A stretch of DNA of 32,988 nucleotides from assembly GCA_902801885.1 (NCBI GenBank), contig CADCJX010000026.1, positions 1 through 32,988 on the forward strand, given 5' to 3'. The notes beneath the pieces are model-generated. The model searched no databases and had not been told where the DNA came from. It was given only the letters and a program-made list of their open reading frames with translations. This document shows positions 7,422-18,284 of this stretch, piece by piece; the stretch's first letter is position 1, and each line of letters starts with the position of its first letter. The stretch is from an uncultured Bacteroidia bacterium. GTDB taxonomy: Bacteria > Bacteroidota > Bacteroidia > Bacteroidales > UBA932. The translations under genes and the position numbers were made by a program.

Positions 7422-9872
7422 TTACTGGTTTCTGAATGCATCCAGAACCTTTTCAAGTTCGTCCAGGCTTGAGATCAGGACCTGCCTGGGCTTGGATCCT
7501 TCCTGAGGGCCGACGATGCCGGCAGCTTCGAGCTGGTCCATCACGCGCCCGGCCTTGGCATAGCCCATTCCAAGACGTCTCTGAAGGTCAGAAGTAGAAC
7601 CTCTCTGATTGGTGACGATCATCCTCGCGGCTTCTTCAAACCGCTCGTCAAGGTTCTTCATGTCAACCATGCCACCCGAGCCTTCTTCGGTGGATTCTTC
7701 CACGTCAGGCAGGTAATAAGGCGTGTTATAGCTCTTCTTGTAGCCCTGCTGTGATCCGATGAAACTGGTGAGTTCACCGATCTCGTCACTGTCGATAAGG
7801 GCACACTGTACCCTTTCCATCTCGACTCCGGCATAATAGAGCATGTCTCCCCTACCGATAAGCTTCTCTGCTCCCGGGGAATCCAGGATGGTAGAAGAAT
7901 CGATCCTGGAAATAACCCTGAAGGCTATTCGGGTCGGGAAGTTGGCCTTGATAAGGCCGGTGATGACGTCTACGGAAGGCCTCTGGGTCGCCAGGACGAT
8001 GTGGATACCTGCGGCCCTTCCCTTCTGGGCAAGACGGATGATGGATGTGGAGATGCTCCTGGCCATGGCTTTGGCGTCTCCTCCACCTCCGACAGACATC
8101 GTAAGGTCTGCATATTCATCGACAACCGTGACTATATAGGGCAGGAACCTGTGTCCCTCAGTGGGGAGAAGGTGACGGTCCCTGAACTTGTCATTGTAGA
8201 GCTTGATATTGGGGACATAGGCCTTGCTCAGGAGCTCGTAACGCTGTTCCATCTCTAGGACCAGCGACTTGAGCACCTTCTCGGCCTTATCTGCCTTCTT
8301 GACGATCGCATTCTCCTGTTCCTCCTTTTCATCGTTGCTGGGAAGCACCGCAAGGTAATGGTGTAGCAGCCGACTGTAGGCGGAGAATTCGACCATCTTG
8401 GGGTCGATGAACACGAATTTTAGTTCCGAAGGGTGCTTGGAGTACAGGAGCGAGGCGACCATCGCATTGAGTCCCACTGACTTACCCTGCTTGGTGGCTC
8501 CTGCCACGAGGAGGTGCGGGGCATCAGCCAGGTCGAAGACCTTGACCTTCTGCTGGATGGTGTAACCGATTGCTATCGGGAGCTCTGCCTTGCTGTTCCT
8601 GAATGCGTCATCATTGAGGACGGCCCTCATGGGGACGATCGACGGCTTGTCGTTAGCGACCTCAATTCCTACGGAATCGGTAAGGGTCACAACGCGGACT
8701 CCCCTCGCATGAAGGTACATTCCGATGTCTTCCTGGAGTTTCTTGATCTCGGCGATCTTCACTCCTGGTGCGGGATAAACCTTGTAGAGGGTAACCGTGG
8801 GGCCCACGATGGCCTTGACGTCGTTGATCTGGATGCGGTAGTTCTCGAGGGTCGCACGGATCTTGTTGTTGTTCCTGGCGAGTTCTTCGTCGGTGACTTC
8901 GTGGTGGCCTGATGAATATTCTTCGAGGAGTTCGAGGGAGGGGAACTTGTAGTTGGGGAGTTCGTCGCGGACGTTGATCCTGGGGAGTTCTTTCTTGACT
9001 TCGGTGGATAGGGTGTCGTCCTTGATGACTTCTAGGGGCTGGTTCTGTCCGGAAGGAGTCGGTACCTCGGACGCCTCGCTTCGCTCGGGGGCTTCTTTTG
9101 TTACTAAAGTAGAAACTGCGGGCGTAGATACTGCTGGTTTAGCAATGACCTTAGGGATAATCTCCTTACGAGAAGGATATGGCGGTTCGGACGCCTCGCT
9201 TCGCTCGGCCCCACCGCTCGCAGGGCTCGCGGTCCCCCCGCTGGTGCCGCGGGCGGCATTGTCCTCACTCGCCAAATCCTTCTCGTGATCGGATGAAATA
9301 TCTCCGAGCGAGGCGAACCAGCGGGAGAAGCGGTCACTGATGAAGAAGAGCCAGAGGGCAAGAAGGAGCAGGATCAGGAAGCCGGTGATGACCGGGCCGA
9401 AGAGATTGCGCGACCAGCCGACCACGGCCTCGCCGCACTCTCCTCCAAGTCCTCCTCCGAAGATATTGCTCCAACCGAAGAGATCGGAGATGAAAGACAG
9501 GATGAACGAAGATACAAGGGCACCTGAGACTGTCAGGAGAATGGTCTTGAGCATCGAGTAGTGCCACCTCTGAAGGAGGAGGCGTACCGAGATTGCAAAC
9601 AGAATCACTATCAGGGCCAGGCTGCCGAGACCGAACCATCTGCGTACCAAAAGGTTGGACCATTTATAGCCCAGCTTGCCGGCCAGATTCCTGATTTCTA
9701 CGGAAGTGTCTCCGACAGGGGCGGCCAAGGCGCTCTGGTCGACCTTCCACGTAAAGAAATAGGAAACTGTAGCAAGGAGGGTGAAGACCGTGAAAATGGC
9801 GACGACGAAACCTGTCGTCTTGACCAGTCTCGCTTTGTCATCCTCATCCATGTTCTTCCAAAGCCTCAACAT
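7422..9872 (-). CDS. ftsK: DNA translocase FtsK
   Basis: An 816-residue septal ATPase that pumps DNA during division and chromosome dimer resolution. Four membrane segments are visible (about residues 19-42, 82-102, 110-132, 160-182), then a low-complexity linker (about 190-320), the alpha/beta RecA-like motor, and a winged-helix gamma domain (about 750-816, QRRLGMGYAKAGRVMDQLE). Walker A is GATKQGKS (458-465) with Lys where Gly is common; Walker B ends VVDEYADL (Asp585). LATQRPSVDVITGLIKANFP is the FtsK signature. The linker holds two in-frame copies of a 22-base repeat encoding ERSEASE, one part of a larger palindromic element. I use the ATG at 9870-9872, which shares its A with the upstream TGA; a GTG one codon earlier is possible. 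Confidence 0.95.
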   Translation of the reverse strand: MLRLWKNMDEDDKARLVKTTGFVVAIFTVFTLLATVSYFFTWKVDQSALAAPVGDTSVEIRNLAGKLGYKWSNLLVRRWFGLGSLALIVILFAISVRLLLQRWHYSMLKTILLTVSGALVSSFILSFISDLFGWSNIFGGGLGGECGEAVVGWSRNLFGPVITGFLILLLLALWLFFISDRFSRWFASLGDISSDHEKDLASEDNAARGTSGGTASPASGGAERSEASEPPYPSRKEIIPKVIAKPAVSTPAVSTLVTKEAPERSEASEVPTPSGQNQPLEVIKDDTLSTEVKKELPRINVRDELPNYKFPSLELLEEYSSGHHEVTDEELARNNNKIRATLENYRIQINDVKAIVGPTVTLYKVYPAPGVKIAEIKKLQEDIGMYLHARGVRVVTLTDSVGIEVANDKPSIVPMRAVLNDDAFRNSKAELPIAIGYTIQQKVKVFDLADAPHLLVAGATKQGKSVGLNAMVASLLYSKHPSELKFVFIDPKMVEFSAYSRLLHHYLAVLPSNDEKEEQENAIVKKADKAEKVLKSLVLEMEQRYELLSKAYVPNIKLYNDKFRDRHLLPTEGHRFLPYIVTVVDEYADLTMSVGGGGDAKAMARSISTSIIRLAQKGRAAGIHIVLATQRPSVDVITGLIKANFPTRIAFRVISRIDSSTILDSPGAEKLIGRGDMLYYAGVEMERVQCALIDSDEIGELTSFIGSQQGYKKSYNTPYYLPDVEESTEEGSGGMVDMKNLDERFEEAARMIVTNQRGSTSDLQRRLGMGYAKAGRVMDQLEAAGIVGPQEGSKPRQVLISSLDELEKVLDAFRNQ
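9067..9088. repeat. 22-bp direct repeat, copy 1 (ftsK linker)
   Basis: An exact copy of bases 9187-9208, offset by 120 bases and so in the same reading frame. On the coding strand it contains GCGAAGC, a sequence known to form a very stable mini-hairpin, and encodes part of ERSEASE. It lacks the C-rich blocks that follow copy 2, so it looks like a partial element. Confidence 0.85.
9187..9257. repeat. GC-rich three-hairpin palindromic element in ftsK linker
   Basis: It starts with the 22-bp repeat (9187-9208, core GCTTCGC at 9198-9204), then CCCCACC (9209-9215), an ACCGC/GCGGT stem (9213-9217 with 9229-9233), the block GCGGTCCCCCC (9229-9239), and a GCCG/CGGC hairpin (9246-9257). The order, the exact CCCCACC and GCGGTCCCCCC blocks, and their 20-base spacing match the element in the ManA-like gene at 17828-17897. 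It encodes about residues 205-229 of FtsK. Confidence 0.7.
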
Positions 9873-10537
9873 CACTTCCGGTTCTTGTTGCGGTTGTTCT
9901 TCTTGTTATTCTTCCGGTTCTGTCCGTTCATGCCGAGGTTCATGCCTGGACGGGAGAAGTTCGAATCCTGCGAAATCTTCGTAAGTTCCAATCCTTCAGG
10001 GACCTTGATCCTGTAGTCGGAAAGCTTTTCAATGTCTGCGAATATCGTTTCGTCAGCCACGCTGTCCTTGTTCCAGATAAGGTACTGCTGCCTCATGTAG
10101 ATGGCGAGGGAACGGATCATTGCCGTCTTCACCTCCCCTTCGGGTTCTCCGGCGATCAGGTCGATAATACTCTCTATGTTACGGCCATAATGGGTCGCCC
10201 TCACGGGAGACTTGTCGATCGGAATCACCATGGGCCTGATAGCCTTGGCTTCCGGAAGTGGTGCAGGATAGGGAGAATCTATGTCAAGGTCATAGCCGGC
10301 GATCATGTAAAGATGGTCCCAGAGCTTCTGTTCGAAGTTCTCCTGCTGATGCACCTGAGGGTTAAGAGTCTCCATGACCTTGACGACGGCCTTGGCCTGC
10401 TCGCTACGCTTTGCGCGGTCAGGAATTCCCTTGAGCTGTTCGACCATACGGAGGACGTTCCTCCCGTACTCTGGCATCTGGAGTTTCTCCCTTTCTGTGT
10501 TGTAGAAAAGTTTTATCGTACTGTCGTTAGCTTCCAT
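9872..10537 (-). CDS. DUF4290 family protein
   Basis: A 221-residue cytoplasmic protein with no signal peptide or membrane segment. The central region matches the pattern I know for DUF4290 of Bacteroidota: EYGRNVLRMVEQL, DRAKRSEQAKAVVKVMETLN, FEQKLWDHLYMIAGYDLDID and a following PYP. The function is unknown. The last 20 residues are almost only Asn, Lys and Arg (GQNRKNNKKNNRNKNRK), a disordered basic tail likely to touch nucleic acid or membrane. Its TGA overlaps the ftsK ATG (TGATG), so the two should be translationally coupled; this pairing with ftsK suggests a link to chromosome or cell division, which is inference. A rubrerythrin gene lies 14 bases upstream. Confidence 0.85.
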   Translation of the reverse strand: MEANDSTIKLFYNTEREKLQMPEYGRNVLRMVEQLKGIPDRAKRSEQAKAVVKVMETLNPQVHQQENFEQKLWDHLYMIAGYDLDIDSPYPAPLPEAKAIRPMVIPIDKSPVRATHYGRNIESIIDLIAGEPEGEVKTAMIRSLAIYMRQQYLIWNKDSVADETIFADIEKLSDYRIKVPEGLELTKISQDSNFSRPGMNLGMNGQNRKNNKKNNRNKNRK

Positions 10538-10551
10538 AGTTATATAAAGAC

Positions 10552-11106
10552 CTACTTGTCGAAATAACGCTTCAGGAGACCGTAGAAACCTGAGCCGTGA
10601 CGGGCCTCGTCCTTGGCCATCTCGTGGACGGTATCGTGGATGGCATCATAGCCAAGGGCCTTGGCCTTCATGGCAGTGGCAAGTTTGCCTTCGCATGCTC
10701 CAGCCTCAGCCATGTAACGTTTCTCAAGGTTGGTCTTGGTGTCCCAGACCATCTCCCCAAGGAGTTCGGCGAACTTGGCGGCATGCTCTGCCTCCTCGAA
10801 AGCATAACGCTTGAAAGCTTCTGCAATCTCAGGATAACCCTCACGCTCAGCCTGACGGCTCATTGCGAGATACATTCCTACTTCGGAGCATTCTCCGGCA
10901 AAATCATGGCGCAAGGCCTCGACGATTTCCTTATCCTCGACCATTCCATCACCGAGATGGTGCTCGCAAGCCCATTGGGGGCCTTCAGCTTCTTCCTTTA
11001 TCTCCACAAACTTGGAGGCAGGGGCCTTACACTGGGGACAACGCTCCGGCGGGTTCTCGCCTTCATAGACGTATCCGCAAACCAGACATCTGAATTTCTT
11101 TTTCAT
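10552..11106 (-). CDS. Reverse-type rubrerythrin (rubredoxin domain first)
   Basis: A 184-residue non-haem iron protein that reduces hydrogen peroxide in anaerobes. The rubredoxin site is N-terminal, with CLVC at Cys7/Cys10 and CPQC at Cys23/Cys26. The ferritin-like diiron domain follows, with Glu in [20 protein letters not shown] and a C-terminal DEARHG. Classical rubrerythrins have the opposite order, so this is the reverse type. The start is the ATG at 11104-11106; an upstream in-frame ATG would add 19 residues across the promoter. A good -7 box lies 22 bases upstream. Gaps to the DUF4290 gene are short, so read-through into the ftsK cluster is possible. It points to an anaerobe facing oxygen stress. 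Confidence 0.93.
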
Positions 11107-11128
11107 GGTAACAAAAATTGTATTTTGA

Positions 11129-11136
11129 CAAATATA
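11129..11136 (-). promoter_or_regulatory. -7 box for the rubrerythrin gene
   Basis: Read leftward, TATATTTG is a full match to TANNTTTG, 22 bases before the ATG. No clear TTTG is present 19 bases further upstream, so the -33 element is weak. Confidence 0.45.
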
Positions 11137-11141
11137 ATAAC

Positions 11142-11149
11142 TAAATTTG
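11142..11149 (+). promoter_or_regulatory. -7 box directly before addB
   Basis: TAAATTTG fully matches TANNTTTG and ends only four bases before the ATG at 11154. If used, the mRNA would be leaderless or nearly so. A TTG lies 21 bases upstream, a slightly long spacing. Confidence 0.35.
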
Positions 11150-11153
11150 ATAA

Positions 11154-14060
11154 ATGAGACCATTCCTCGAACAGGTAGCCGACCACTATATCCAGGCAGG
11201 AGGCATCTCCGGCCGCTGCTTCATATTCCCCAACAGGAGAAGCCAGGTGTTCTTCAAGAAATACCTGGGCGAAGCCGTAAAATCTCTCGGGAGTCCTATC
11301 ATAGCCCCGAAGATGCTGACCATCAATGATTTCTTCTACGAGATAGCAGGCTCGAAGCCCACTGATCGGGTGAGCCTCCTGCTCGAATTGTACGATTGCT
11401 ACAAGGCTCTGTTCCCCAAGGCGGAACCCCTGGACGAGTTCATCTTCTGGGGCGATGTGATCCTGGGAGACTTCGACGATGTGGACAAGTACCTCGCAGA
11501 CCCTTCGCAGCTTTACACCAACATCAAGGAATACAAGGAGATACAGGACACATATTCCTACCTCACCCCAGGGCAGAAGGAGGCGATAGACCGCTTCGTG
11601 AAGCACTTCAGGGATTCGGGCCGCCTTACGGTGAACCTCGATTCAAACAATCCAAATGTGAAGGAGCGGTTCCTTCAGATCTGGAATATCCTGCTGCCAT
11701 TGTACGAGAGTTTCAGGGACAACCTCGTCTCCAAGGGCATGTCATACGAGGGCATGACCTACCGGAGCCTTGCCGAAAGGCTCAGGAAGGAGCCTGTTGC
11801 GGACGTCCTCTCCGCCTCTTTCGGAGATGTCAATGAATATGTGTTCGTGGGTCTCAATGCCCTGAACGAATGCGAGAAGACCTTGATGAAGAAGCTTCGG
11901 GACGCAGGCCTGGGGGCATTCTGCTGGGACTTTTCCAGCAAAATGATAAGGGACAGGCGGAACAATGCCTCACTCTTCATGACCAGAAACCTGGAGGAGT
12001 TCGGACAGGTCTTCCCCATCGACGAAGAAGGACTGCCGCTGCCGGAAGTGGAGGTGATAAGCGTGCCTTCGTCTGTAGGACAGGCAAAACTCATCCCATC
12101 TATCGTCAAGGATGAAGACTATGCCATCGTCCTTCCTGACGAAAGCCTGCTTGTCCCGGTGCTGAACTCCATACCGCCCGAAATCAAGGACATAAACGTC
12201 ACGATAGGCAGCCCCATGCGAGGCAGCGCATATTTCGATTTCATGACCCTGGCCTCCGCCATGCAGATGCACCTGAGGCAGAAAGACGGCAAGTGGTACT
12301 TCTACCACAACCAGGTCTGGGCATTATTCTCATCCGGATTGTTCAGGAAGGTCACCAAGGATGACGAAGTCTTGAGGGAAAGGGTCGATTCGATCAAGAA
12401 GGAAGCAGAATACTATATTCCCCAGGAAAAGCTGAACGGTCTGCCCGTATTCGACCTTATCTTCAGGCCGGTGGTGACTGATCCAAAGTCCACCTCAAGA
12501 GAGCAGGCACGGGCTTTCGTGGAATACCACAAGTCACTGATCCTGGGAATATCGCCCTTGCTGGCTGAAGATCCTGACATGATGGTCGAACTGGAATTCG
12601 CCAGGAAGGCATATTCAGCGATCAACCTCCTTGCCTGCAAGGATTTGGAGATCCTCCCACAGACTTTTGCCAGGCTCCTGGACCAGATCCTCAGTCCCAT
12701 CTCGGTCCCTTTCAATGGTGAGCCCCTCAAAGGCCTCCAGATCATGGGACCCCTGGAGACAAGGGCCCTGGATTTCCGGCATCTGGTCATCCTTTCCTGC
12801 AACGAAGGCATGTTCCCAAGACGGAGCGTCAGTTCTTCATTCATTCCTCCTGAGTTGAGAAAAGGTTTCGGCCTGCCTACATACGAGTTTCAGGACGCGA
12901 TCTGGGCCTATTATTTCTACCGCATGATCCAAAGGGCGGAGACCGTGACCCTGGTCTATGACTCCAGGACAGAAGGGCTCAAGAACGGAGAGGAAAGCCG
13001 CTTCATAAAGCAGCTCGAGTACCACTACAACCTGCCTCTCAAGCGCAGTTTCGTCAGGGCTGAAGCAAGATTGCATGAGGATGATTCGCAGATCATGAAG
13101 ACGGAGGAAGACATAGAGAAACTGTCCGGAATCACCCTTTCCGCATCGTCCTTGAAAAACTACCTGGACTGCCCGGCGAAGTTCTATTTCTCCAAGATAG
13201 CCTGTCTGACGGAGGAGAGCGAGGTCGCGGAAGACCTCGACTCCGGCATGCTCGGAGACGTCTATCATTCGACGATGCAGGCCCTCTACATGGGCGAAGG
13301 AGCTATGGATCCTGACTACGACATGGGTAACAGGAAGGTGAATGCTGCGTTCCCCGGGGCCCTGAAAGAGATCACAAAGGAATTTATCCTTTCCTGGATG
13401 AAGCGGAAGTCCGACATCAAGAAGAGGGTCAGGAGCCTGATCCTCAAGCAGCTACATACCCTCGAAGTGAGCGGGAGGAATCTGGTCCTGGAGAACGTGA
13501 TCGTCCAGTACGTGATGAAGACGCTCCAAAGGGATAAGGAACTCCTGGAGAAACTCGGAGTGCCATCCTTCAAAGTCATAGGCCTGGAAAACAAGTTCGA
13601 GATGAAAATCGATGGCTTCAACTTCGTCGGCTATGTCGACAGGATGGACAGTTTCCTGCCAGGAGAAGTCAGGATCGTAGACTACAAGACCGGCCGGGTC
13701 GAGGCGGACGATGTGGACATAAACGATGGGAATGCCGAGAGGGTTGCGGAAGCCCTCTTCGGGGAAGACAACCAGAAACGTCCCAAGATCGCTTTCCAGC
13801 TTTTCCTCTATGACTACCTTGCGGCATCCAACCCTGAATTCAAAGGCAAGGTGCTTGTCAATTCGGTCTACCAGCCTGCCAAATTCTTTACGGAAGAGGT
13901 CCGGAACGTACCCATGAGCCTGAAATTCAACGAGGAAGTGGAGCAGCGTCTTCACGGTCTTCTCTCCGAGATCAGGAATCCCGAGGCGGGGTGGAGGAGA
14001 ACCGATGACACGAAGACATGTTCATGGTGTGATTTCAAGATGATTTGTGGGAGGCAATAG
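11154..14060 (+). CDS. addB: AddB-like nuclease subunit with iron-sulfur site
   Basis: A 968-residue DNA repair protein that with AddA processes double-strand breaks for RecA. The N-terminal region starts [16 protein letters not shown], as in Bacteroidota AddB relatives. The C-terminal PD-(D/E)XK nuclease shows RIVDYKTG (Asp843, Lys845) followed by the QLFLYDYL helix. Four cysteines fit the AddB 4Fe-4S pattern: Cys673 in LDCPAKFYF, then Cys956-x2-Cys959-x5-Cys965 near the end. [21 protein letters not shown] is a degenerate helicase-like motif. The start ATG follows a possible promoter closely. addA begins two bases after the stop, so they form an operon. It could also be listed simply as a PD-(D/E)XK nuclease family protein. 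Confidence 0.92.
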
Positions 14061-14062
14061 CT

Positions 14063-17000
14063 ATGATAGAGATTCTCAAGGCATCAGCCGGTTCCGGAAA
14101 GACTTTCAACCTGGCCAGGACTTACATAAAACTCCTCCTGCAGAATGAGGATCCCACTGCCTACAGGCACATCCTTGCCGTGACTTTCACGAACAAGGCG
14201 ACCGACGAGATGAAAAGCAGGATCCTCAAGGAACTCCACAGGCTCTCCACGGAGCCTGGAAAATCCCAGTACACCAAGGACTTCGTACCTTCATTGTTCC
14301 CGACTGAGGCAGCTCTGCAAAAAAAGGCCGAAGATGTTCTTTTCAACATCCTCCACGACTACAGCGCCTTCTCCGTGAGCACAATAGACCGCTTCTTCCA
14401 GCAGACGCTGAAAGCCTTTTCCAAGGAGATCGGCCAGTTCGCCTCCTACCAGGTCGAGCTGGACAAGGACTCCCTCGTCAGCGAGAGCGTGGACAGGATC
14501 CTGGACTCGCTTACGGAGGACAACAAGGCTCTTCTCGGCTGGCTCAGCGACAGCATGATGGACCAGCTGGAGCAGGGCCACAGGTTCAACCTCGAAGGGA
14601 GCCTTTCAGACATGGCGAAGCGTCTCAAGTCCGACGAGCACAGGGCCGTGGTGGAGGAATATGGTATCGATGAAGAAAAAACATATTCAAAGGAAAACCT
14701 GACCAGGATGAAGTCCAGGTTCAGGGAGGTCATTAATTCCTACGTCAAGGAAGTGAAAGCGGCTGCCACAGCAGTCTCAGATGCTTTCGCCCAGGCCGGG
14801 GTCTCCCCTGCCGAAACCTCCAGGGGATTCATGGCCGGGGTTCTGGACAAATTCAGTGCGATGGACTCCCGTTCCACCTTGCCAAATCTTACTGAATCAT
14901 TCAGGAAAAAGGCCGAAGATTTCAGTACTTGGTTCAAAAAGGCCGACCAGCCGAAATACAACTCCATGGAAGGGACCCTAGTACCACCGGTTGCCAGGCT
15001 GATAGACACATACGACAAAGGTCTCAAGACCTTTAACACCGCAAGGATACTGCTCGGCCAGACCAACGACCTGGGGATCGCTTCCGAACTCTCAAAGGAA
15101 TTCCGGAATCTCTTGAAAGAGAAGAACGTACTGAGCCTCGACGACTCCAATCAGATCTTGAAAGGGATTATTGACGGTTCCGACGCTCCGTTCATCTACG
15201 AAAAGCTCGGTGTACGATTCGAGCATTTCCTCCTCGATGAGTTCCAAGACACTTCCAAGGTTCAGTGGGAGAATTTCAAGCCTCTCATTTCGAACAGCGA
15301 TGCCTCCGGAAACGAGAATCTTCTCGTCGGCGATGTGAAGCAGAGCATCTACCGCTGGAGAGGGTCCGACTGGAAGTTGATGGCAAAGGATGTCGCAGAA
15401 GAATTCCCCGGAGCTGTCAATGAAAGCCTGGAAGGCAACTGGAGAAGCCTTAGGAATATCGTCGAGTTCAACAACTCTTTCTTCAGGTATGCCGCTGCAG
15501 AGTTGGACAGGATCTATGGTCATGATGCCTCGATTTCTGTGTCTTCAATCTACGGTGGAGATAGCTCAAAGGGTCAGGAAGTAATGACCGGGGACCCGTC
15601 CGAAGGGCTTGTGGAAGCGGTCTTCTGCCCCCAAGACGCACAGGATGACCACATTCTGGACACAATCTGCAAGGTCATCGACTCGGGAGCAAAACCCGGA
15701 GACATAACCGTCCTGGTACGAAACAACCAGGAAGGTTCTGAAGTTGCAGGTTTCCTGATGGATAAAGGAATTGATGTCATTTCAGATGACTCCTTGCACT
15801 TGAAGTCCTCTTTCATGGTCAGGAAACTGGTCTCCCTGATCTCGTCGGTCAAGAACCCGGATGACACCATAGGTTCCTATCTTGCTACAAAGGCCGGTCT
15901 TGAGGCCGGAAAGATATCTTTCCACTCGCTTCCAGACCTGTGTGAACAGCTCCTGAGACTCCTTCAGAAGAATGAGGATCCCGAAATCATGAAGGACGAG
16001 ACTCTCTACATCCAGTCTTTCATGGATTACGTGCAGGACCACGTGGCCTCGAACGGCAACTCCCTGGACGCCTTCCTGAAGGCCTGGGACGAAGCCGATC
16101 CAAAGGTGAGTTCGCCCTCCGACGTGAATGCCGTGCGGGTCATGACTATCCACAAGGCCAAGGGATTGGAGTTCCCTTATGTCATATTCCCATATTCAGA
16201 AAAGGTCACCCTGTTCAAGGCCCATTCTTCATGGACGGTGCCGTCGGTGGATGGGACACCCCTCCAGGACATCGGCAACACCGCGTTCGACGTGACCCTG
16301 TCATCTGGAAGCGCCAGCACCTTGTTCGAGAAGGACTACAGGCAGGAGTTGCTGCTCCAGTACATCGACAACATCAACACCTACTATGTCGCCCTGACCA
16401 GGGCATCCAAGGGGATGACGATAATCTCCGACATAGACTCCAAGCCGGAAGGCAGCTTCGCCGGACTGTTGCGGGGTTACCTTGAAGGGTTCGGAGCCTC
16501 GGAAGGTTTCTCCGAGGAGAGTGATAATGATGAAGAAGTAATGTTCAGGAAAGGCTCGATGTACGATTTCAGCCGCCTGGAAAGGAAGGAAGAGGACATC
16601 ACAGGGATAGAACCTGGATTCCCCTCCTTCCCCTTGAATCCGGAGGGCGAAGAAGGTACTGAAAGGGGAAGGCTCAGGGTCTCCACAGATGCGGCCGATT
16701 TCTTTACCGCGGAAGGAATGGCAAGGGCGGAGGCCAGGCACAACGGCACAGTGCTCCATGACATCCTGTCGAGGGTGAGGGTGCCTTCCGATCTTGAACC
16801 GGCCGTGCTTCAGGCGGTCAGGGACGGAGAACTTGAGCCTGAACGTAAAGACGATGTGCTAAGGCTGCTTTCTGAAAGAATATCTTCCCGTTCGGAGTGG
16901 TTCCCGGTGAGCGGGACGGCAATTCTCAACGAGACTTCGCTCTTCGACACAGACGGCAGGGAGTGGCGCCCGGACCGCGTGGTGATCCGGGACGGGAAGG

Positions 17001-17143
17001 TCACGGTCATAGACTACAAGTTCGGTGAGCATAACCCCCACTACAGGAAGCAGGTCGCAAGGTACGCCGCAATCTACCGCCGCCTCGGCTACGAGGACGT
17101 CTCCACAGCCATCTGGTACGTCCCCTCCGACGAAGTGGATTGA
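14063..17143 (+). CDS. addA: AddA-like UvrD-family helicase/nuclease
   Basis: A 1026-residue SF1A helicase with a C-terminal nuclease, the motor partner of AddB in double-strand break resection. Motif I is ASAGSGKT (residues 7-14), Ia HILAVTFTNKATDEMK, II LLDEFQDTSKVQW (Asp392, Glu393), III/IV VGDVKQSIYRWRGSDW, V VMTIHKAKGLEFPYVI, VI YYVALTRASKGM. The nuclease motif VTVIDYKFGE (Asp984, Lys986) with QVARYAAIYRRLGY lies at the C-terminus. The start is the ATG at 14063, two bases past the addB stop, because the Walker A motif usually lies within the first dozen residues; an upstream TTG would overlap addB. No RecD-like subunit is nearby. Confidence 0.95.
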   Translation: MIEILKASAGSGKTFNLARTYIKLLLQNEDPTAYRHILAVTFTNKATDEMKSRILKELHRLSTEPGKSQYTKDFVPSLFPTEAALQKKAEDVLFNILHDYSAFSVSTIDRFFQQTLKAFSKEIGQFASYQVELDKDSLVSESVDRILDSLTEDNKALLGWLSDSMMDQLEQGHRFNLEGSLSDMAKRLKSDEHRAVVEEYGIDEEKTYSKENLTRMKSRFREVINSYVKEVKAAATAVSDAFAQAGVSPAETSRGFMAGVLDKFSAMDSRSTLPNLTESFRKKAEDFSTWFKKADQPKYNSMEGTLVPPVARLIDTYDKGLKTFNTARILLGQTNDLGIASELSKEFRNLLKEKNVLSLDDSNQILKGIIDGSDAPFIYEKLGVRFEHFLLDEFQDTSKVQWENFKPLISNSDASGNENLLVGDVKQSIYRWRGSDWKLMAKDVAEEFPGAVNESLEGNWRSLRNIVEFNNSFFRYAAAELDRIYGHDASISVSSIYGGDSSKGQEVMTGDPSEGLVEAVFCPQDAQDDHILDTICKVIDSGAKPGDITVLVRNNQEGSEVAGFLMDKGIDVISDDSLHLKSSFMVRKLVSLISSVKNPDDTIGSYLATKAGLEAGKISFHSLPDLCEQLLRLLQKNEDPEIMKDETLYIQSFMDYVQDHVASNGNSLDAFLKAWDEADPKVSSPSDVNAVRVMTIHKAKGLEFPYVIFPYSEKVTLFKAHSSWTVPSVDGTPLQDIGNTAFDVTLSSGSASTLFEKDYRQELLLQYIDNINTYYVALTRASKGMTIISDIDSKPEGSFAGLLRGYLEGFGASEGFSEESDNDEEVMFRKGSMYDFSRLERKEEDITGIEPGFPSFPLNPEGEEGTERGRLRVSTDAADFFTAEGMARAEARHNGTVLHDILSRVRVPSDLEPAVLQAVRDGELEPERKDDVLRLLSERISSRSEWFPVSGTAILNETSLFDTDGREWRPDRVVIRDGKVTVIDYKFGEHNPHYRKQVARYAAIYRRLGYEDVSTAIWYVPSDEVD

Positions 17144-17156
17144 CAAATTGTTTTTG

Positions 17157-17164
17157 TATATTTG
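17157..17164 (+). promoter_or_regulatory. -7 box for the ManA-like gene
   Basis: TATATTTG is a full match to TANNTTTG and lies 22 bases before the ATG at 17187. It starts 13 bases past the addA stop. A TTTG at exactly 19 bases upstream is absent. It suggests the ManA-like/S4/SusCD cluster is transcribed apart from addBA. Confidence 0.45.
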
Positions 17165-17186
17165 ATAATTGAGACATAATAATCAC

Positions 17187-18284
17187 ATGGAAGAAACTTC
17201 AAAAAAACTGTACCCGATGAGGTTCGTGGAGAAGGAGGCGGAGATGCCTTGGGGACAGGTCTGTTACCAGATCGCAGATCTCGGGGCGATCGACTCGATG
17301 GTGTACGACGGATGGCTTGGAGGCAACAACCTGAGCGAACTCATGGGGACATTCCTGGAGAGAGTGGTCGGGGATGATGCCTTTGAATTCTACGGGCTTC
17401 AGTTCCCCATACTTGTCAAAGTGATGAAGACTTCAGGCAGGCAGCCGCTGCAGATCAATGCTGCGGATGATGTCGCGGAAGAGAGATACGATTCGTTCGG
17501 GAAAACGGCGTTCTGGTTCGTCAAGGAGGCTTCTGAAGATGCATCCTTGTTCCTCGGACTGAACAGGGATGTGGATGCCGGAGAGTTTTACAGGAGGTGC
17601 CAGGAGGGCACGGCTGAAGAGATCCTGAATGTGATCCATCCGAAGGTCGGGGATAGCTTTGTCATCAAGCCGGGGACGGTCTACGCTGCCGGCCCGGGAC
17701 TTACGATCGTCGAGATCTCCGAGTGCTCTGAGCTGTCGTTCAATCTCGAAACCGAACTCGAAGAGGCCTTCGACCTCATCGACTTCCACCGCTTCGTCTC
17801 TCCGGCGGCATTGACCCCTCGTTCAACGTCCGCTTCGCGGACCCCACCACCGACTACGTCGGCGGTCCCCCCTCTTACGTGGCCGAGGGTGGCCACGGTT
17901 GCCGAGGGGTCAATGCCGTCGGAAGACAGTGGAAAGGGATGTAAGCTGGCGGAGTGTGATGAATTCAAGGTTACAAAGTTCGATCTGGAGAATCCCCTTC
18001 ACATATTCAGTGACCAGCCCGGAAGCTTCGCAATCTACCACTGCATCAGCGGAGAAGCCTTCGTACAGGCTCCGACTGAATCCGGCGGCTACGAGAACTA
18101 TCCTCTCAAAGCCGGTGCAAGCATCCTCGTCCCATCCGAAGTGAACGACTTCATGCTGTTCCCTGCGGCAGACAAGACCGTGCTCCTGGAAGCCACGGTC
18201 GAAAGACGCACCCTGCCCGACTCCTACACCGACGGCAAGCCTGCCGACGACACTCCAGATCCTCATGTAAGACAATGGAATTAA
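17187..18284 (+). CDS. ManA-like type I phosphomannose isomerase homologue lacking zinc ligands
   Basis: A 365-residue cupin protein resembling type I mannose-6-phosphate isomerase: MPWGQ near the N-terminus, FPILVKVMKTSG, a QINAADD block, FGKTAFWFV and KPGTVYAAGPGLTIVEIS. Active enzymes have QVHPDD, GKTExW and PAGxxHAIG, where Gln, His, Glu and His bind zinc. Here Gln89 is kept, but His is Asn91, Glu is Ala108 and the second His is Tyr166; the TYRxYD Arg segment reads SFNLETE. It is probably not a working isomerase and may bind a sugar or regulate. Residues about 205-246 are encoded by a palindromic element in the linker between cupin domains. The start at the ATG at 17187 is preferred over a TTG 18 bases earlier. 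Confidence 0.82.
   Translation: MEETSKKLYPMRFVEKEAEMPWGQVCYQIADLGAIDSMVYDGWLGGNNLSELMGTFLERVVGDDAFEFYGLQFPILVKVMKTSGRQPLQINAADDVAEERYDSFGKTAFWFVKEASEDASLFLGLNRDVDAGEFYRRCQEGTAEEILNVIHPKVGDSFVIKPGTVYAAGPGLTIVEISECSELSFNLETELEEAFDLIDFHRFVSPAALTPRSTSASRTPPPTTSAVPPLTWPRVATVAEGSMPSEDSGKGCKLAECDEFKVTKFDLENPLHIFSDQPGSFAIYHCISGEAFVQAPTESGGYENYPLKAGASILVPSEVNDFMLFPAADKTVLLEATVERRTLPDSYTDGKPADDTPDPHVRQWN
17801..17923. repeat. In-frame palindromic element in the ManA-like gene
   Basis: 123 bases (41 codons) bounded by 21-base inverted arms, 17801-17821 and 17903-17923, that pair with one G:T mismatch (17805/17919). Inside are three hairpins: GTCCGC-TTC-GCGGAC (17828-17842), ACCaCCGAC-TAC-GTCGGcGGT (17846-17866) and CGTGGCC-N6-GGCCACG (17878-17897). 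The blocks CCCCACC and GCGGTCCCCCC occur at the same 20-base spacing as in the ftsK element. The element keeps the reading frame open and encodes a Pro/Ser/Thr-rich stretch. Confidence 0.85.

What the first reader, a model, noticed from the sequence alone, without database searches (positions are those of the whole stretch)
9187..17923. Related multi-hairpin palindromic elements sit in frame inside two unrelated genes (ftsK and the ManA-like gene)
Seen directly: both genes contain GCTTCGC, then CCCCACC, then GCGGTCCCCCC. The first two blocks start 11 bases apart in ftsK and 10 in the ManA-like gene; the last two start 20 bases apart in both. The bases between CCCCACC and GCGGTCCCCCC differ but still form a stem (ACCGC/GCGGT in ftsK; ACCaCCGAC/GTCGGcGGT in the other). 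A further hairpin follows in each. The ManA copy is enclosed by 21-base inverted arms and is 123 bases long, exactly 41 codons. Established parallel: Rickettsia palindromic elements insert in frame in protein genes. Inference: this is a Bacteroidota counterpart that lands in linkers and adds residues without breaking the protein.
Basis: partly seen in the sequence, partly recalled or inferred. Interest (0 to 1): 0.78.

Follow-up and report, generated by a model that had tools for sequence, protein, structure and literature searches.

The report
Flipping hairpin inserts inside housekeeping genes
A Bacteroidales genome carries about two dozen copies of a small folded DNA insert, many of them in frame inside ordinary housekeeping genes, and comparison with related species shows that the middle part has turned around in place while the surrounding arms keep matching each other.

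Summary
The two window copies belong to a repeat family: 29 covariance-model matches in this genome, matches in 47 of 61 genus genomes and 35 of 149 family genomes, own included. Of 174 assessable copies held, 99 lie in frame in long ORFs, for example in miaA, ispH, argC and ftsK.

Each copy is a cloverleaf: three conserved hairpins closed by an outer stem. The stem differs from site to site, yet its arms are complementary in 187 of 190 copies. Non-orthologous copies that share inner arms have unlike outer arms that still pair within each copy (42 of 43 pairs).

At 35 shared sites 65 pairs have the core inverted and 64 not, but at 90% or higher flank identity 1 against 8. In 43 of 46 inverted pairs inside genes the core exchanges the same two open frames.

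Best explanation: an element that works like a Rickettsia palindromic element, its arms homogenised and its core inverted by replication template switching (inferred). How copies spread is unknown. The literature searches made found no such account in Bacteroidales.

The parts
9166..9289 (+). element copy, subtype B, inside ftsK (read in frame on the - strand as SEDNAARGTSGGTASPASGGAERSEASE)
   Evidence: R1 match 1.4e-22; in-frame ORF
9168..9192 (+). left arm of the ftsK copy
   Evidence: complementary to 9261-9286 with mismatches
9193..9209 (+). hairpin H1 of the ftsK copy
   Evidence: alignment A1
9213..9233 (+). hairpin H2 of the ftsK copy (ACCGC..GCGGT)
9243..9260 (+). hairpin H3 of the ftsK copy (TGCC..GGCA)
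9261..9286 (+). right arm of the ftsK copy
9067..9088 (+). remnant of a second copy (H1 part only) in the ftsK linker; G072 has a complete copy at this place
   Evidence: match L048; L035 vs L166
7422..9875 (-). ftsK, host gene
   Evidence: ORF, Pfam FtsK_SpoIIIE, alpha, gamma, 4TM
17801..17923 (+). element copy inside the ManA-like gene, 123 bases
   Evidence: R1 match 17800-17925, 5.4e-18; in-frame ORF
17801..17821 (+). left arm of the ManA copy
   Evidence: 95% complementary to 17903-17923
17828..17842 (+). hairpin H1 of the ManA copy
17846..17866 (+). hairpin H2 of the ManA copy
17878..17897 (+). hairpin H3 of the ManA copy
17903..17923 (+). right arm of the ManA copy
17169..18284 (+). ManA-like (mannose-6-phosphate isomerase, cupin domain) host gene
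   Evidence: ORF, PF21621

Best explanation
A family of small palindromic elements of a Bacteroidales lineage (mostly 115-140 bases by the model) that sit in intergenic DNA and, in frame, inside ordinary genes, where they are read as an extra loop or linker; they work like Rickettsia palindromic elements. Each copy is a four-way hairpin structure: three conserved hairpins (core) closed by a long outer stem. The inner part of the stem travels with the element; the outer part is made at or after arrival, as an inverted copy of local sequence. Replication template switching across this structure then does two things: it keeps the arms complementary while their sequence drifts, and it inverts the core in place. 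Both orientations of the core are open in the frame that the host gene uses, so an inversion swaps one peptide (ATLGTLRGGTGAERSEASGGAERSEA type) for another (ASLRSAPPLASLRSAPVPPLNVPRVA type) without breaking the gene. Shown: family, structure, in-frame placement, arms matched within and not between copies, orientation turnover between species, frame exchange. Inferred: template switching as the cause, translation and near-neutrality of the inserts, mobility by a still unknown route.
For: Family: 29 own matches, 47 of 61 genus genomes, 35 of 149 family genomes in 11 of 25 genera, own included in each. Structure: 19 of 19 outer-stem pairs with changes on both sides; on 112 copies from other genomes 91.0% of cells paired, covariation score 0.507 against 0.131 shuffled and at most 0.101 slid (that alignment was fitted to the model, which favours it). 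Arms: within-copy score median 22 against 6 between copies, 187 of 190 above the 99% null; outer 16 nt of 43 non-orthologous pairs (40 copies) that share inner arms: within-copy mean 7.0, cross-copy -0.5, within above cross in 42 of 43. Flips: 65 inverted and 64 same-orientation pairs at 35 sites; inverted against same 1 to 8 at flank identity 90% or more, 5 to 5 at 86-90%, 59 to 51 below. Clearest in-place flips, arms homologous and core identity at least 0.90: 16 pairs at 10 sites, at 5 of them both copies in frame; miaA read base by base. Frames: 43 of 46 inverted genic pairs exchange the same two frames. In frame: 99 of 174 copies; in 7 of 8 genic filled/empty pairs read, the length difference is a multiple of three (126, 108, 117, 144, 111, 90; 126). 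Published: template switching homogenises arms and inverts spacers of short inverted repeats in yeast genes (PMC8604942, abstract and passages).
Against: No flip or arm conversion was seen within one species or in reads; all rests on comparison of assembled genomes, mostly MAGs. Only 16 of 65 inverted pairs meet both criteria for an in-place flip, so others may be separate insertions at favoured sites (GH3 gene, L039/L164, core identity 0.82); but in the earlier, less exact version the arms were recognisable in only 32 of 60 same-orientation pairs too. Arms share a weak consensus (purine-rich, then C-rich; by eye), so they are not plain random host sequence. The eighth genic pair, L144/L124 in miaA, differs by 184 bases, not a multiple of three, and was not resolved. 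Only 17 of 149 candidate filled/empty pairs were printed and read. The ftsK copy does not fold better than shuffles. Pairs are not independent: 129 come from 35 sites.
Confidence: 0.72

Rival explanations
1. A classical MITE: a deletion derivative moved by a transposase that recognises its terminal repeats; flips are independent insertions in either orientation at favoured sites.
For: Size, palindromic form, in-frame and intergenic copies, shared sites; in-frame fusions are reported for several bacterial MITEs (PMC2229807, passages); some inverted pairs have unlike cores (L039/L164 0.82).
Against: Arm ends match within copies and not between them. In the 318 loci then held, no right half had a left half 60-300 bases away; 53 had none by the pattern and 4 only beyond 300, but the printed stretches show a left half beside most of these, a few being cut by contig ends. 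No target-site duplication was recognised by eye. At 10 sites the arms are homologous and only the core is turned.
Confidence: 0.15
2. A REPIN-like element mobilised by a REP-associated tyrosine transposase (RAYT) of the same genomes.
For: Y1 transposase genes occur in 46 of 61 genomes and co-occur with the element: 41 of 47 element-bearing genomes have one, 5 of 14 others (Fisher p 3.3e-4; 26 genomes at least 90% complete p 0.013). Five of five tested proteins hit NF047646, below its cut-off.
Against: Of 26 Y1 places looked at (part of those listed), 1 held a clear element copy (L327, about 0.9 kb away) and 1 a doubtful one (E 0.055). Several of these genes, read by eye, have other repeats beside them. 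Six element-bearing genomes lack a match. Shared descent was not corrected for.
Confidence: 0.08
3. The outer stem is held by selection for a function of the structure (terminator, RNA stability, protein binding), not by template switching; compensatory changes arise one by one.
For: Strong covariation; some intergenic copies have A/T runs outside the arms as terminators do (L007, L017, L023).
Against: Copies in genes face both strands and all six frames; at one site whole arms differ between species yet match within each copy (argC; acyltransferase site), which needs many paired changes; selection does not by itself invert the core.
Confidence: 0.05

Closest known systems
Rickettsia palindromic elements (RPE; Ogata et al. 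2000 recalled; described in PMC2229807, passages read)
   Same: 105-146 bases, palindromic, in intergenic DNA and fused in frame in conserved protein genes (19 reading frames reported there); one tested enzyme is active with changed substrate affinity.
   Different: RPE are listed with terminal inverted repeats of 12 bp; here outer arms are specific to the site. RPE are said to lose repeat identity with time (PMC6649704, passages); here arms stay matched. In-place inversion of an RPE is not known to me (recalled). Sequence homology was not tested.
Coding palindromes of nematomorph mitochondria (PMC6649704, passages read)
   Same: Long inverted repeats inside protein genes with arms kept identical; the authors propose template switching or repeat conversion.
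   Different: There perfect repeats scattered in mitochondrial genes; here a dispersed bacterial family with a conserved three-hairpin core that turns.
Template-switch arm homogenisation and spacer inversion in yeast genes (PMC8604942, abstract and passages)
   Same: Both outcomes seen here: matched arms and inverted spacers in coding DNA.
   Different: Yeast spacer inversions changed 2-5 bases, and the authors call long inversions in proteins unlikely to be neutral; here a core of tens of bases turns within genes in frame.
Bacterial MITEs with open frames (Correia/NEMIS, YPAL, RU-3; PMC2229807, passages) and REP/REPIN (PMC3733652, search listing)
   Same: Small, dispersed, palindromic, non-autonomous; several MITEs are reported fused in frame to other ORFs.
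   Different: No conserved ends, no target-site duplication recognised, no partner gene found here.

Membership tests
RPE-like coding palindromic element (as a kind, not by descent) | about 100-150 bases, palindromic, many copies | tested here: met
RPE-like coding palindromic element (as a kind, not by descent) | in frame in unrelated conserved genes as well as intergenic | tested here: met
   99 of 174 in ORFs; miaA, ispH, argC, RecQ family, cardiolipin synthase and others named
RPE-like coding palindromic element (as a kind, not by descent) | terminal inverted repeats common to the family | tested here: not met
   arms match within copies, not between; subfamilies share inner arms only
RPE of Rickettsia (by descent) | sequence homology to known RPE families | not tested
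   no RPE sequence was compared
MITE | autonomous partner with the same ends | tested here: inconclusive
   none seen in the loci held; whole genomes could not be scanned for it
MITE | target-site duplication | tested here: inconclusive
   filled/empty pairs show short repeats that fit insertion or hairpin deletion
REPIN/RAYT | element copies beside the RAYT gene | tested here: not met
   1 clear copy in 26 Y1 loci
Invertible segment of a site-specific recombinase | common recognition sequence in the inverted repeats | tested here: not met
   arms differ from site to site; a weak consensus remains
Invertible segment of a site-specific recombinase | inversion within one population | not testable with these tools
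   no reads or strain series at hand

The most novel reading that the evidence does not exclude
A transposase-free parasite of replication: a three-hairpin core that is copied into new places by template switching at short homologies, makes its own arms by snap-back copying of whatever DNA lies beside it, and, once inside a gene, acts as a reversible coding module whose inversion exchanges one 25-30 residue peptide for another in housekeeping proteins.
Probability: 0.25. Interest if true: 0.93.

Novelty: new variant of a known kind. Interest (0 to 1): 0.8.

Why it matters
In-frame palindromic elements are best known from Rickettsia and Wolbachia, with some open-frame MITEs elsewhere. A gut lineage with such copies in most sampled species of the genus makes their drift, inversion and loss measurable. 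It would be a natural record of replication template switching in bacteria, with orientation changing on the time scale of species divergence, and evidence that coding segments of tens of bases can be inverted inside housekeeping genes and survive. It also shows a route by which proteins gain loops.

Tried and rejected
Inverted duplication of the target as shown fact: sites L151/L195 (ispE), L158/L197 (aroC), L013/L178 and miaA of G090 (L131) keep one arm, or part of one, in the species without the element, which first looked like a native target copied in inverse. Elements occur at the L151 and L013 sites in other species, and the own-genome aroC loop, without the element, is longer than in most relatives (47 residues in the stretch read, against 33-40 in other element-free genes read from the same start), so these may equally be scars of hairpin deletion between short repeats. 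The aroC pair L377 (G189, filled) and L356 (G042, empty) shows a 7-8 base outer arm as inverse of neighbouring native bases, with the same ambiguity. I therefore claim local origin of the outer arms only from the 42-of-43 test.

Autonomous copy with a gene in the H2 loop: none seen in the loci held. RAYT as mover: associated but not adjacent. Known RNA family: none at the gathering threshold in the window. Mobile DNA: one 108-base copy had no match in phages or plasmids at E 1e-3, and a 27-base pattern of subtype A none in viral contigs. Assembly artefact as cause of flips: it should give equal orientations at every distance, but at 90% or higher identity it is 8 to 1 for the same orientation.

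A first version of the copy statistics used an anchor that could fall in an arm: arms 145 of 173 above null, 60 same and 65 inverted pairs, one of them within a locus, outer arms 40 of 41, 95 of 158 in frame, in-place flips 12 pairs at 9 sites. It was replaced, which gives the numbers cited. One search left out pairs from one locus and pairs above 98.5% flank identity.
Full report
What is in the window. The ManA copy is 17801-17923, 123 bases, with 21-base arms 95% alike; it folds with z -4.5, while the ftsK copy alone has z +0.39. The ftsK copy has arms too (9168-9192 and 9261-9286). A remnant at 9067-9088 marks a place where relative G072 carries a complete copy, while the window's own full copy is not at its place in G072.

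A family. DNA searches of the own genome at E up to 10 gave 26 matches to the ManA copy and 31 to a subtype B copy, weak chance ones included. Twenty-four copies were aligned; left out were L024 (long H2 loop), the fragments L046 and L049, and the window remnant. On this alignment 19 of 19 outer-stem pairs have changes on both sides (68.9% of cells paired without gaps in the stem) and the three hairpins are 86-93% paired. The covariance model R1 gave 29 own matches at E 0.01 or less and matches in 47 of 61 genus genomes, and at E 1e-4 in 35 of 149 family genomes, 11 of 25 genera; the own genome is counted in each. Genus genomes G033 and G017 have contigs of the same lengths as MAGs RUG12500 and RGIG7537 in that list, which is why I write Bacteroidales; the genus is not named here.

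Where it sits. Of 27 own copies or fragments, 18 lie in long open frames that look like ordinary genes (two of them fragments, two in one ORF), one more (L013) in a 151-residue frame that looks spurious, and 8 in none. NCBIfam or Pfam matches name miaA, NADPH-dependent glutamate synthase, cardiolipin synthase, ispH, a GH3 enzyme, a dihydrolipoamide acyltransferase, a RecQ-family helicase, an rRNA methyltransferase, argD-type and argC genes (some below the curated cut-off), a MatE transporter, a DNA polymerase III clamp-loader subunit, FtsK and the MPI cupin protein. Over all loci held, 99 of 174 assessable distinct copies are in frame in long ORFs; two of six frames hold 78 of the 99. Relatives without the insert exist for the ManA-like gene (G033), ispH, miaA and aroC. 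Of 149 candidate filled/empty pairs 17 were printed, and one more was read; in 7 of 8 genic ones the difference is a multiple of three (126, 108, 117, 144, 111, 90, 126), the eighth, L144/L124 in miaA, is 184 and unresolved.

The arms. Within a copy the two arms match (median score 22 against 6 between copies; 187 of 190 above the 99% null). Subfamilies share inner arms at unrelated places; in 43 pairs that share 14-26 bases on the right and a like stretch on the left, the next 16 bases pair within each copy (mean 7.0) and not across copies (-0.5), in 42 of 43. At shared sites arms differ between species in both halves at once: argC and the acyltransferase site (ten loci). So the outer stem is made and re-made locally. 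In the first-version data cores were 0.91-0.92 identical at shared sites whose flanks averaged 80-81%.

The flips. G072 is the closest relative found, by its gltD-type and miaA matches. Of 12 shared sites compared with it, 5 have the core in the same orientation, 5 inverted (one a block of two copies turned as a whole), and 2 could not be compared like with like. Over all loci 64 pairs are alike and 65 inverted, at 35 sites, 21 of them with an inverted pair; alike against inverted 8 to 1 at 90% flank identity or more, 5 to 5 at 86-90%, 51 to 59 below. Orientation is thus inherited but turns over between species. Sixteen pairs at 10 sites have homologous arms and a core of at least 0.90 identity, the clearest in-place flips; the rest may include separate insertions. 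Of 46 inverted pairs with both copies in genes, 43 exchange the same two frames, so a flip leaves the gene open.

How it most likely works. Template switching between the arms of inverted repeats is reported to homogenise arms and to invert spacers (PMC8604942, passages), and is proposed for coding palindromes of nematomorph mitochondria (PMC6649704, passages). Both outcomes are seen here, without a strong common recognition sequence in the arms. The conserved hairpins next to the arms may favour such switching. This step is inference. What spreads the copies is open: no autonomous partner in the loci held; RAYT-type Y1 genes co-occur (Fisher p 3.3e-4, not corrected for descent), but a clear copy was found at only 1 of 26 Y1 loci.

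What is known. Seven searches of the held PMC library gave Rickettsia palindromic elements, other MITEs, nematomorph coding palindromes and yeast template switching, and in their listings no account of in-frame palindromic elements in Bacteroidales; most subscription papers and preprints are not held. The kind, a coding palindromic element, is known; site-made arms and in-place inversion of a coding core are, as far as these searches go, new.

Noticed in passing
L010 (own genome), L170 and L159 (G072), L227: A second repeat family with blocks CCCCCCTGCACCCCC .. GGGGGACTGAGGGGCG .. CCTCAGACTCCCTGAGTCGC beside element copies, also palindromic and partly inside ORFs; at L010/L170 it is turned together with the first family.
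   Followed up: partly
L370 (aroC of G212), L151 (ispE of G072), L182, L196, L020: A third in-frame repeat with ACTCAGCCGCAGCRRAGCGAGGATGG, read as TQPQ(Q/R)SEDGL in proteins, in aroC of G212 where other species carry the first family or nothing.
   Followed up: no
G072 sites orthologous to L023 and L024 (L179, L183); also L187, L189: Sites that hold the first family in the own genome hold a GTCATTCTGA(A/G)CG-type repeat in G072, at two of them between matching arms: sites seem to outlast the element they hold.
   Followed up: partly
L018/L014 (own C15:29336-29630) and L171/L172 (G072): Two copies in opposite orientation in one ORF, the whole block inverted between species.
   Followed up: partly
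G189:C50 (L118, L150) and own C4 (L012): A GH3 gene with its element is identical in the compared stretch in two species that are 82% alike at gltD: recent transfer or contamination.
   Followed up: no
L325-L344: RAYT-like Y1 genes of these genomes have REP-like repeats of other sequence beside them, for example CCATGTGGT..ACCACATG (by eye).
   Followed up: partly
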